Part shown: positions 16,620 to 44,008 of the stretch, piece by piece | Numbering within the stretch: position 1 is the first letter of the stretch | Layout: every line of letters starts with the position of its first letter | Program-made: the position numbers and the translations under genes | The notes under the pieces: model-generated | Database searches by the model: none | What the model was told of the DNA's origin: nothing | Seen by the model: only the letters and a program-made list of their open reading frames with translations | Origin: Candidatus Synechococcus spongiarum | GTDB taxonomy: Bacteria > Cyanobacteriota > Cyanobacteriia > PCC-6307 > Cyanobiaceae | Length of the DNA: 44,008 nt | Direction: 5' to 3' | Assembly: GCF_900047545.1 (NCBI RefSeq) | Contig: NZ_FITM01000145.1 | Span: forward strand, 1 to 44,008

Positions 16620-16677
16620 GGGTGCTTTGGGCTGGCGCCAGACAACTGTTGTTCTAACAACTAGGATTCCATGGTTA

Positions 16678-16750
16678 GCCGCTGTAGCTCAGTTGGTAGA
16701 GCAACGCTTTCGTAAAGCGTGGGTCGTCGGTTCAAGTCCGGCCAGCGGCT
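16678..16750 (+). tRNA. tRNA-Thr (anticodon CGT)
   Basis: A 73-base cloverleaf with a perfect seven-pair acceptor stem (GCCGCTG with CAGCGGC), a D-arm containing AGTTGGTAGA, anticodon stem ACGCT/AGCGT around the loop TTCGTAA, and T-arm GTCGG TTCAAGT CCGGC. Anticodon CGT reads ACG. The discriminator base is T, and CCA is not encoded. Confidence 0.96.
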
Positions 16751-16763
16751 TGATGGGGTAGTA

Positions 16764-41455: not shown

Positions 41456-42298
41456 TCAGGTGATGGACACAGGGGAATCCAACCCCCGGCGCAACTCGGC
41501 GCAGAACGCCCCCACCACCGTGGCTGGAGGGTCGGATGGGCCGGCCGCAGCAATGCGCTTTACAAAAGCGCTGCCCACAATGGCCCCGTCACTGCCCCAG
41601 AGGCGCACCTGCCATGCCTGGGCGGCAGTGGAAATTCCGAAGCCCACGGCCACTGGTTGTCGGGCCAGGGATTTGAGTTGGCCAACCAGGGATGCCACCC
41701 GCTGGTCCATCTGCTCGCGGGTCCCTGTCACCCCTGTCACGCTCACCAGATAGATAAAGCCGCGGCTGGTCCGGGCAATCCGGGCCATGCGTTGGGGGGA
41801 CGTGGTGGGCGCCACCAACAGCACCATGTCCAGCCCGGCAGCCGCCACCATGGGGGACAGGCGTTGCGCCTCCTCAAGGGGGAGATCCGGCACCACCAAC
41901 CCCGCTGCGCCCACGGCGGCTGCACGGTCACAGAAGGTGTCTACCCCCATGTTGAGCAAGGGGTTGGCATAGGTGAACAGCACCACGGGCATGTGTAACT
42001 GCCCACGCAGACCCGCCAGCATGTCCAGCACACCCCCACAGGTGGCGCCCGCTGCCAAGGCCCGTCCAGCCGCGGCCTGAATCACCGGACCATCCGCCAG
42101 GGGATCGCTGTAGGGAATGCCCAATTCCACCAGATCAGCCCCCTGGTCCTGCAAGGCCAGCAGGCAGGCCGCTGTGGTGTCCAGGTCCGGATCACCAGCC
42201 ATCAAAAAGGGCATCAAGGCGCAACGCCCCTGTTGGGCCAGGGTGGCAAAGCGGGCGCCGATGGCACTGGGTTCAGGCGAAGCGGGATTGCAGACCAT
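41456..42298 (-). CDS. trpA: Tryptophan synthase alpha subunit
   Basis: Cleaves indole-3-glycerol phosphate to indole and glyceraldehyde 3-phosphate. The 280-residue barrel has [14 protein letters not shown], the catalytic glutamate in [21 protein letters not shown], the catalytic aspartate in [20 protein letters not shown] and the phosphate loop [12 protein letters not shown] followed by GAIVGSAFV. The ATG at 42298 is used; a GTG one codon upstream is possible. It follows ndhL and the DUF3007 gene on the same strand, a familiar cyanobacterial order. Confidence 0.97.
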
Positions 42299-42310
42299 CA
42301 CTTAACTCAT

Positions 42311-42661
42311 TCACTCAGCCGTTTGCCGGCTCGACGCGTCGCCAGACTCAGGGGCGGTGGAGGACAACAACTCCTGCTGCTCCGTTTCACTCAGGGCTTC
42401 AAAGCGTCGCAGCAATTCCTCGTCCGTGGCCTGATCGTAGCGCTGGCGGTAGTGCCTGCGCATTTGCATGAAGGTCATGTCGCCCCGCACAACCCGCCAG
42501 CCATAGCTGGCCACCCAGAGGATCACCACCAGCACCAGCAGGGCGGTGGACACCAATCCTGCGTTGAGTTCACCAAAGCCCGCCCATTGCAACACCTGGG
42601 GAAGCATCCCGCCAACAGCCAACAAGGCCAGGCCCAGCAGAAGCACGTGCCCTTTGGTCAT
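42311..42661 (-). CDS. DUF3007 family membrane protein
   Basis: A 116-residue protein with two predicted spans (about 5-25 and 35-55) and a hydrophilic C-terminus that includes MTFMQMRRHYRQRYDQATDEELLRRFEALS, characteristic of the DUF3007 family of cyanobacteria and chloroplasts. Function unknown. Its ATG overlaps the ndhL stop (ATGA), which implies co-translation with the NDH-1 subunit and hints at a link to that complex. Confidence 0.82.
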   Translation of the reverse strand: MTKGHVLLLGLALLAVGGMLPQVLQWAGFGELNAGLVSTALLVLVVILWVASYGWRVVRGDMTFMQMRRHYRQRYDQATDEELLRRFEALSETEQQELLSSTAPESGDASSRQTAE

Positions 42662-42894
42662 GGCTTGTCATAGCGTCCCGCAGGACGTAAATTCACGAAG
42701 GGGGACAGCAGAATCAACCCCGGAAACAAAAGAAACACCAGTCCATAGCTTAGCAACCGCTCCACTTTGCCCATCCCGTGCCAACGTCGGTGGAGCCAGG
42801 CCATCAAGGCGCCAGGGGCCAGGACCAGATAGGTCACCCCCAGAACGCCAACCAGTCCCAGAAGCAGCAGGGTGTTGAATGATGGCATGGGCAT
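42658..42894 (-). CDS. ndhL: NAD(P)H-quinone oxidoreductase subunit L
   Basis: Small membrane subunit of cyanobacterial NDH-1 that helps ferredoxin-driven electron entry in cyclic electron flow and CO2 uptake. The 78-residue product has two spans (TLLLLGLVGVLGVTYLVLAP and LLSYGLVFLLFPGLILLSPF), with WLHRRWHGMGKVERLL between them and the typical ending FVNLRPAGRYDKP. ATGs at 42894 and 42888 both fit; longer starts run into the tRNA-like gene and are unlikely. Confidence 0.9.
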   Translation of the reverse strand: MPMPSFNTLLLLGLVGVLGVTYLVLAPGALMAWLHRRWHGMGKVERLLSYGLVFLLFPGLILLSPFVNLRPAGRYDKP

Positions 42895-42951
42895 GGGTCT
42901 ACCAGCGGAGGGGTCACAGAGATTCAAAATACCGTACGTGGCGGGAAACCA

Positions 42952-43026
42952 TGCCCGTGGTGGGATTTGAACCCGCACTGAGGCGATTTTTAAGTCGCCT
43001 GTCTCTGCCAGTTGGACTACACGCGC
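42952..43026 (-). tRNA. tRNA-like gene with TAA anticodon and eight-base anticodon loop
   Basis: Read leftward, the 75 bases fold as a class I cloverleaf. The acceptor is GCGCGTG with CACGGGC (one G-G mismatch), the D-arm has GTC/GAC with AACTGGCAGA, the anticodon stem is GGCGA/TCGCC around an eight-base loop CTTAAAAA, the variable loop is TCAGT, and the T-arm is GCGGG TTCAAAT CCCAC (one mismatch). The discriminator is A. TAA would read UUA (leucine), but leucine tRNAs have a long variable arm and this one does not. So it is either a degenerate tRNA or a tRNA-like RNA; canonical tRNA-Leu is unlikely. Confidence 0.65.
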
Positions 43027-43244
43027 CGGCGTTGGGCTGAGGTCTTCAACCCAGGACAGACCGTCAAGGGGACTGCATGAATTGCATGCAGCAGGTTGCT
43101 AATCTGCATCAAGACGCAACTGGCTTCATGATCTCTTATGTCATTCTGCAACAATTTATTACATTCCCGCAAGAGATTCGGCGATTCTTCACCACTGAAT
43201 TTCAGAGGGAAAGATAGTTATTCTAGACACATATAATTACAATT
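43027..43244. other. AT-richer intergenic region with a small hairpin
   Basis: About 220 bases without a gene, upstream of both the tRNA-like gene (minus) and the haloperoxidase-like remnant (plus). Positions 43073-43091 form a perfect seven-pair hairpin (CTGCATG with CATGCAG, loop AATTG). The base composition is visibly lower in GC than the core region to the left. Confidence 0.5.
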
Positions 43245-44008
43245 ATGGAAATCAATCTTTCCAGGCGAAAATTTCTACTGGCCACCGCTGGCGCACCAGC
43301 GTCGCCACTTTGATCACAGGCTGCCCTTCTCCCCGTATGGCGCCCTTTATCACTGATCTTCCTATGGGGCACAGATCATCAAACCACAGCACTAGAAGAC
43401 CGTCTTTCAGTCTGTGGATGCGGCCTTGCAGAGGTGCGGGACCAAGGGATTTCTCCACGCCAGGCGGCCTATAATTACAGCGTGGCCACGGCCGCCGGTT
43501 TTCTTGCCGCCAACGGGATTGTTCAGGCCTATGGAGAACCTTTTGGAATTGGCGCCGGACCACGTGATGCCAACTCGGAAGTTACCTACAGGATTGCTTT
43601 TGCAGAGACGGCGGCTGAAGTCTTCCAACAACCTTTCCTGTTTGAGCGCATTGCCTTCCTGAACCAGTTTCCCAACAACGAGGCCAAGGCCTTGGGGGTC
43701 CAATGGGGCAAGGCAGTGGGGCGGCGAATCTGTGAAACTCGCACCAATGACGGCTCCGAGCCCAGCGAAGTCAATTATTATCTTGGCCGTTACAGGCCGA
43801 CGGTCCGATGTGTTGTGCTGGCACCCGACCGGTTCGTTCTACGGCGCCACACTGGGTCCGGCATTTGCATCGTTTGATCGGGGTTTACGTCCAGGATAGG
43901 GAAAAATGAAGTCCTGGATGATGACAAGCAGTTCACAGTTTCTTGGGAAAGTCTGGGAAATTGGATCTTTACAGCAGCGCGGGAGTCAGATTGAGCCTAT
44001 TTTGAGCC
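43245..44008 (+). pseudogene. Decayed Tat-exported protein, resembling vanadium-dependent haloperoxidase / PAP2 superfamily
   Basis: Frame starts at the ATG at 43245 with MEINLSRRKFLLATAGA, a twin-arginine signal, but a TGA interrupts it at 43311. The same frame then runs to about 43800, including DQGISPRQAAYNYSVATAAG and ALGVQWGKAVGRRICETRTN followed by DGSEPSEVNYYLGRYRPT. This layout (GKAV..I...R.NDGS, then GRYRPT) resembles the helical N-terminal half of vanadium haloperoxidases. The likeness then continues in another frame (WHPTGSFYGATLGPAF, RPG). A TAG at 43897 stands where a GWG motif would be expected, and SSSQF with GKVWEIGSLQQRGSQIEP follows to the window edge. So at least two stops and one frameshift are visible. 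The family call rests on pattern memory only. Confidence 0.5.

What the first reader, a model, noticed from the sequence alone, without database searches (positions are those of the whole stretch)
42952..43026. tRNA-like gene with an eight-base anticodon loop and UUA-reading triplet on a class I body
The cloverleaf is recognisable, but three features are abnormal: loop CTTAAAAA has eight bases, acceptor and T-stem each carry one mismatch, and the TAA anticodon is not matched by the long variable arm of leucine tRNAs. Enlarged anticodon loops occur in frameshift-suppressor tRNAs, and tRNA-like RNAs may have other roles. Decay of an old gene is the simplest alternative.
Basis: partly seen in the sequence, partly recalled or inferred. 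Interest (0 to 1): 0.55.

Follow-up and report, generated by a model that had tools for sequence, protein, structure and literature searches.

The report
Decayed copy of short-arm leucine tRNA
The odd gene looks like a decaying spare copy, but its intact twin belongs to a compact kind of leucine tRNA, lacking the long arm that textbooks describe, which appears to have taken over the reading of the UUA codon in several groups of bacteria and is also carried by viruses.

Summary
The tRNA-like gene at 42952-43026 (-) is real: tRNA model 38.3 bits, eight-base loop. Loop and both stem mismatches are peculiar to this copy. An intact sister copy (7-base loop CUUAAAA, 60.3 bits) lies elsewhere in the same genome. 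The window copy is best read as a decayed duplicate, not a frameshift suppressor.

The class I body is not decay. It marks a family of tRNALeu(UAA) with a short variable loop, found in sponge-symbiont Synechococcus, RCC307, Cyanobium, Actinobacteria, Planctomycetes, phages and a plasmid. In 27 of 28 picocyanobacterial genomes with the typical form, the canonical long-arm tRNALeu(UAA) was not detected; 244 of the other 272 match it. The exception is a fragment at a contig end. UUA still aligns with leucine in orthologues. All 51 distinct members fetched keep the leucine identity bases tested, and stems covary.

Best reading: the ordinary LeuRS charges this short-arm tRNA, which alone reads UUA in these hosts. 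[quoted passage not shown] Expression and charging were not testable here.

The parts
42952..43026 (-). Decayed second copy (copy a) of the class I tRNALeu(UAA)
   Evidence: ARAGORN 'taaa'; Rfam tRNA 38.3 bits; orthologue of G008 copy a, 84% over 1353 bases of window 42600-43940
42987..42994 (-). Eight-base anticodon loop CTTAAAAA; relatives have seven bases CTTAAAA
   Evidence: Sequence; the extra A is absent from all 10 aligned relatives
43024..43024 (-). G3, unpaired against G70 (42955), in the acceptor stem
   Evidence: Marked as a non-standard pair in the cmscan alignment; picocyanobacterial relatives in the alignment pair here
42961..42961 (-). A64, unpaired against C50 (42975), in the T-stem
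   Evidence: G in all 10 aligned relatives
42658..42894 (-). ndhL, the gene downstream of and co-directional with the tRNA; the start at 42894 is my choice
   Evidence: Pfam NdhL, E 8.6e-26
42311..42661 (-). DUF3007 gene, conserved neighbour
   Evidence: Pfam DUF3007, E 1.8e-23
41456..42301 (-). trpA, conserved neighbour
   Evidence: Pfam Trp_syntA, E 3.8e-85

Best explanation
The window gene is a decayed second copy of a genuine leucine tRNA with anticodon UAA and a class I (short variable loop) body. The intact copy in the same genome, like its relatives elsewhere, is charged with leucine by the ordinary LeuRS, because it keeps the leucine identity set (A14, A15-U48, G18G19, A20a, A73), and it is the only tRNA that reads UUA. 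In picocyanobacteria it stands upstream of ndhL, where relatives carry the canonical long-arm tRNALeu(UAA) in the opposite orientation, so it has replaced that gene. Shown by computation: the two copies, the family, near-complete mutual exclusion, the shared locus, the unchanged meaning of UUA, conserved identity bases, covarying stems. Inferred: expression, leucylation, sole decoding of UUA, and arrival by horizontal transfer, perhaps through phages.
For: Intact copy in the same genome. Window copy and C57 copy match copies a and b of G008, which are identical over the tRNA. Class II pattern in 1 of 28 genomes with class I against 244 of the other 272 (Fisher p 4.6e-22). 5' half of the class II gene, which an intron would not hide, absent from all 28 and from G048, found in 14 of 17 class II controls. 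Class I gene upstream of and co-directional with ndhL in 14 of 14 fetched picocyanobacterial loci that hold ndhL; class II gene divergent from ndhL in G012 and G102. UUA aligned with Leu in 45 of 55 and 48 of 58 well-conserved positions. Six identity features in 51 of 51, against 3 of 76 other class I tRNAs. 14 of 20 pairs change on both sides. In E. coli the sequence and folding of the long arm do not follow leucylation (PMC9976931, passages).
Against: No expression or charging data. Many genomes are drafts; 28 of the other 272 family genomes have no class II match, and 3 of 10 genomes of the window's genus match neither form. G215 shows a class II-like fragment too. The class II counts may hold some chance matches: the reversed-pattern control scored in a minority of genomes. 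In the window's own genome few UUA codons could be judged (4 of 5 to Leu), and the small first test was mixed (59 of 99 alignments to Leu, 15 to Ser). Direction of transfer between phage and host is not shown.
Confidence: 0.78

Rival explanations
1. The window copy is a working +1 frameshift suppressor: its eight-base loop reads UUUA as four bases, or slips, on particular mRNAs.
For: Eight-base loop with an intact anticodon stem; the six leucine identity features are kept in this copy.
Against: Found in one genome only of the 300; acceptor and T-stem mismatches; minimum-energy fold is not a cloverleaf; orthologue in G008 is intact. Target mRNAs were not searched for.
Confidence: 0.05
2. The oddities are sequencing or assembly errors in a draft genome.
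For: G000 is a draft of 179 contigs, 72% complete; one base removed from the loop would give seven.
Against: Five private differences in 75 bases plus the unpaired G3, with flanks that align normally to the G008 orthologue at 84%.
Confidence: 0.08
3. The class I UAA tRNA is not a leucine tRNA: UUA has been reassigned, or the tRNA serves something other than translation.
For: The body is class I, unlike the other bacterial leucine tRNAs fetched, bar three in one array.
Against: UUA faces Leu like the other leucine codons in two class I genomes; leucine identity bases in 51 of 51; no other UAA tRNA detected in those genomes.
Confidence: 0.04
4. The canonical class II tRNALeu(UAA) is still present in these genomes but was missed, and the class I gene is an extra.
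For: Pattern searches can miss variants: 3 of 17 class II controls failed the 5'-half search, and 28 of the other 272 family genomes lack a class II match. G215 holds a class II-like fragment.
Against: Patterns for the two halves of the gene both fail in the closed genomes RCC307 (G032) and G167. The class I gene stands where the class II gene stands in relatives. In 119 genomes of an actinobacterial order, none of 14 with a class II-like UAA match had a class I one.
Confidence: 0.07

Closest known systems
Canonical bacterial tRNALeu(UAA), class II (cyanobacterial trnL-UAA, often with a group I intron)
   Same: Anticodon UAA, loop CUUAAAA, A14, A15-U48, G18G19, A20a, A73, three-pair D-stem with a long D-loop; same ndhL locus in picocyanobacteria.
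   Different: Variable loop of five bases instead of a long arm; different acceptor, D and T stem sequences; opposite orientation at the locus.
Phage and plasmid tRNA-Leu(UAA) genes (S-CREM1, Sf-FR1, P-SSM7, mycobacteriophage Kykar, Curtobacterium plasmid G54a)
   Same: Same class I architecture; S-CREM1 is 87.5% identical over 97% of the intact gene.
   Different: Carried on phages or a plasmid, often beside other tRNAs, rather than as the chromosome's UUA reader.
Animal mitochondrial tRNALeu(UUR)
   Same: A leucine tRNA without a long arm that rests on A73 and A14 (PMC9976931, passages).
   Different: Organellar and charged by a mitochondrial LeuRS; here a bacterial tRNA with the full bacterial elbow set.
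[quoted passage not shown]
   Same: Leu anticodon on a body without a long arm (PMC8450103, passages).
   Different: A recent anticodon change of a tRNAMet gene, barely expressed and perhaps a pseudogene; here a conserved family with leucine identity bases.
Frameshift-suppressor tRNAs with enlarged loops (recalled)
   Same: Eight-base anticodon loop in the window copy.
   Different: The window copy is found in one genome only and its stems are damaged.

Membership tests
Canonical class II tRNALeu(UAA) | Long variable arm (10 bases or more) | tested here: not met
   Five-base variable loop in the window copy and in its relatives
Canonical class II tRNALeu(UAA) | Leucine identity elements A14, A15-U48, G18G19, A20a, A73 | tested here: met
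   51 of 51 distinct class I UAA tRNAs and the window copy; U48 was part of the pattern that fetched the named loci
Canonical class II tRNALeu(UAA) | Charged with leucine | not testable with these tools
   Indirect only: UUA aligns with Leu
Short-arm (class I) tRNALeu(UAA), the family described here | Seven-base loop CUUAAAA and complete acceptor and T stems | tested here: not met
   Window copy: eight-base loop, G3.G70, C50.A64; met by the intact copy at C57
Short-arm (class I) tRNALeu(UAA), the family described here | Homology and locus | tested here: met
   Orthologous to G008 copy a beside ndhL
Frameshift-suppressor tRNA | Enlarged anticodon loop | tested here: met
   Eight bases
Frameshift-suppressor tRNA | Functional, conserved molecule that shifts frame | tested here: inconclusive
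   Eight-base form found in one of 300 genomes only and with damaged stems; frameshifting cannot be assayed here
Allo-tRNA (8/4 or 9/3 cloverleaf) | 8/4 or 9/3 acceptor/T-stem lengths | tested here: not met
   The family fits a 7/5 cloverleaf: both helices paired in 100% of cells

The most novel reading that the evidence does not exclude
A short-arm leucine tRNA that circulates on phages and plasmids has repeatedly taken over the UUA slot of bacterial chromosomes, displacing the essential long-arm tRNALeu(UAA), in picocyanobacteria at the same ndhL locus, without a change in LeuRS or in the code. One possible driver, untested, is escape from nucleases that recognise the long-arm tRNA.
Probability: 0.4. 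Interest if true: 0.8.

Novelty: new variant of a known kind. Interest (0 to 1): 0.62.

Why it matters
[quoted passage not shown] The sequences here indicate that many bacteria decode UUA with a leucine tRNA that lacks it, and that genomes within one genus differ in which form they carry. This is a natural test of what LeuRS needs from its tRNA, of how an essential tRNA gene is replaced, and of whether phage tRNAs can become host tRNAs. It also bears on annotation: a class I body with a Leu anticodon should not be set aside as an isotype conflict.

Tried and rejected
Reassignment of UUA: tested by aligning orthologues and rejected. A first, smaller test (23 distinct codons, 99 alignments: 59 Leu, 15 Ser, 10 Met) pooled several genomes against short loci and was too thin.

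Relic of the class II gene beside the class I gene: blastn with 7-base words in ten class I regions found its best hits in the stretch that the two tRNAs share (D-loop to anticodon loop) and elsewhere only short matches with E above 1, so no relic was recognised.

LeuRS adaptation: no column separates 15 LeuRS of class I genomes from 13 of class II genomes; 30 columns split within genus g53, none of them consistent over all genomes. A first attempt took wrong frames for some rows and was discarded. On the LeuRS tree the label needs five changes, of which strongly supported branches force two; some branches are long.

The promoter and terminator scan of 42800-43400 found nothing. The query meant for ndhH was only three residues long and tested nothing; one search repeated it: ndhH lies next to the tRNA in G000 (C57), G003 and G008 only, of the 20 fetched loci, so the shared mark of the locus is ndhL, not ndhH.

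Dropped before counting: four pattern hits without a tRNA by ARAGORN (G119, G166, G292, G177); G088, in a group of four tRNAs, kept apart. Hits and 48 other than G215 are serine tRNAs or stretches where ARAGORN finds no tRNA. For the covariation count I took 28 members of exactly 74 bases and left out shorter and longer ones.

Literature: nine searches. Nothing I saw in the listings or passages describes a bacterial tRNALeu(UAA) without a long arm. PMC2474678 (passages) says in legends that several Sec, Ser, Tyr and Leu tRNAs of its set have short arms; which ones is in a supplement that I did not see, so a bacterial or viral example may be among them. PMC5733544 on cyanobacterial tRNAs (abstract, outline, passages), PMC7609411 (passages), PMC4524478 (passages), PMC8007984 (passages) and PMC8450103 (passages) do not mention it in what I read. 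Subscription papers are mostly not held.

Full report
Observation. The feature is at the stated place. ARAGORN reports a tRNA with a four-base anticodon 'taaa' at 42952-43026 on the minus strand, and the Rfam tRNA model gives 38.3 bits. The loop CTTAAAAA has eight bases, the acceptor has G3.G70, the T-stem C50.A64, and the variable loop has five bases.

An intact copy exists. A search of 60 genomes with 136 bases around the gene matched 10, among them a second place in the window's own genome, G000:C57:355-451. That copy has a seven-base loop CUUAAAA and 60.3 bits. Against ten aligned relatives the window copy has five private differences: the extra A, two bases at the foot of the anticodon stem and variable loop, one in the T-loop and A64; G3 stands unpaired besides. 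Window 42600-43940 aligns at 84% with copy a of G008, and the C57 copy with copy b; in G008 the two copies are identical over the tRNA. The pair therefore probably predates the split of the two lineages and the window copy decayed later (inference).

The class I body is a family trait. In 300 genomes of the family the short-variable-loop UAA pattern matched 33. Four have no tRNA there by ARAGORN and one, G088, lies in a group of four tRNAs; 28 are the typical form. The long-arm UAA pattern matched 245 of the same 300: 1 of the 28 and 244 of the other 272 (Fisher p 4.6e-22). The exception, G215, is a stretch near the end of a 3,464-base contig in which ARAGORN finds no tRNA. A search for the 5' half of the class II gene, which an intron would not hide, at up to one mismatch matched none of the 28 and not G048, and matched 14 of 17 class II controls; the three missed controls are the three from genus g70. 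Three of ten genomes of the window's genus match neither form.

Same locus. In 14 of 14 fetched picocyanobacterial loci that hold ndhL and a class I gene, the tRNA lies upstream of ndhL and co-directional with it; in the window as well. In G012 and G102 the class II tRNALeu(UAA) lies at the same place but divergent from ndhL. ndhH is the other neighbour only in G000, G003 and G008. The distant G048 locus has no ndhL match. Genus g53 holds both forms in the sample: nine genomes with class I (G215 among them) and four others with class II. No relic of the class II gene was recognised beside the class I gene.

Meaning of UUA. ORFs of two class I genomes, in the stretches fetched, were aligned with about half of the class II genome G012. 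At well-conserved positions UUA faced Leu in 45 of 55 (G001) and 48 of 58 (G032), against 183 of 249 and 669 of 837 for UUG; over all aligned positions it was 87 of 127 and 95 of 133. In the window's own genome only 5 UUA codons could be judged (4 Leu), and in six other genomes of its genus 9 (5 Leu). A smaller first test gave 59 of 99 Leu and 15 Ser. The code looks unchanged, so a tRNA carrying leucine must read UUA; that only a UAA anticodon does so in bacteria is recalled.

Why LeuRS should accept it. In E. coli, leucine identity rests on A73, A15-U48, G18G19, A20a and elbow contacts; sequence and folding of the long arm did not follow activity, and variants without it stayed active (PMC9976931, passages). 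All 51 distinct class I UAA tRNAs among the loci held have the six features tested, against 3 of 76 other class I tRNAs, 21 of 22 class II leucine tRNAs and 0 of 14 other long-arm tRNAs. U48 was part of the pattern that fetched the named loci, so it is not independent. One LeuRS scores over the cut-off in 28 of 29 genomes (G034 had none over it), and no column of 28 aligned LeuRS separates the groups.

Structure under selection. On 28 members of 74 bases (27 distinct), 99.8% of 540 cells are standard pairs, 14 of 20 pairs show changes on both sides, and the covariation score is 0.561 against 0.185 in shuffles. Relatedness is not removed by those shuffles.

Distribution. A scan of genomes of 84,980 species for an anticodon-loop and T-arm pattern gave 55 loci; ARAGORN reads a UAA tRNA of class I size in 54 of them and none in L235. 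They include picocyanobacteria, Actinobacteria such as Ornithinimicrobium and Demequina, Planctomycetes, Verrucomicrobia and a Coriobacteriia bin. In 24 genomes behind named loci (RCC307 among them; L240 was not held) the class II searches found no class II leucine tRNA. In 119 genomes of the order of Ornithinimicrobium I read 14 with a class II-like UAA match and none of these had a class I one; at least 54 had a class I one in a list that was cut short, one of the 54 doubtful (few of these were checked with ARAGORN). 126 phage and 8 plasmid records match the intact gene by blastn; the anticodon was checked in four phages and one plasmid, all UAA and class I. G048 is probably Gloeobacter violaceus (recalled from its genome length).

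Conclusion. The finding itself is a decayed gene copy. What it belongs to is unusual: a bacterial leucine tRNA without the long arm, apparently the sole UUA reader of its hosts, standing where the canonical gene used to be. Expression, charging and direction of transfer are untested. I found no description in the searches named, but sequence databases must hold many of these genes under the plain name tRNA-Leu (inference from the phage records).

Noticed in passing
L099:6608-9402 (G008); window 43027-43940: In G008 the two tRNA copies are direct repeats on either side of about 2.8 kb that holds a gene with PAP2 and weak vanadium-chloroperoxidase matches and another long reading frame. The repeat ends sharply at the tRNA's last base, as at the end of an element inserted in a tRNA gene. 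The window holds the same stretch beside its copy.
   Followed up: partly
L010 (G050): A dense group of 20 tRNA genes contains three class I tRNAs with leucine anticodons CAA, CAA and UAG that carry the same leucine identity bases, so the short-arm form is not limited to UAA.
   Followed up: partly
L113:6678-7766 (G088): Four tRNAs (Arg UCU, class I Leu UAA, Asn, Ile UAU) close together, with a short-arm Leu tRNA of a different sequence type; perhaps phage-derived.
   Followed up: no
L227, L233, L243: In three Planctomycetota contigs the short-arm tRNALeu(UAA) lies near a tRNACys(GCA) gene.
   Followed up: no
L254 (phage Sf-FR1): A cyanophage whose source is given as the sponge Petrosia ficiformis carries a short-arm tRNALeu(UAA) and also a long-arm tRNALeu(UAG).
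   Followed up: no
window 16677-16751: An ordinary tRNA-Thr(CGU), 69.1 bits, the only other tRNA found in the window.
   Followed up: no
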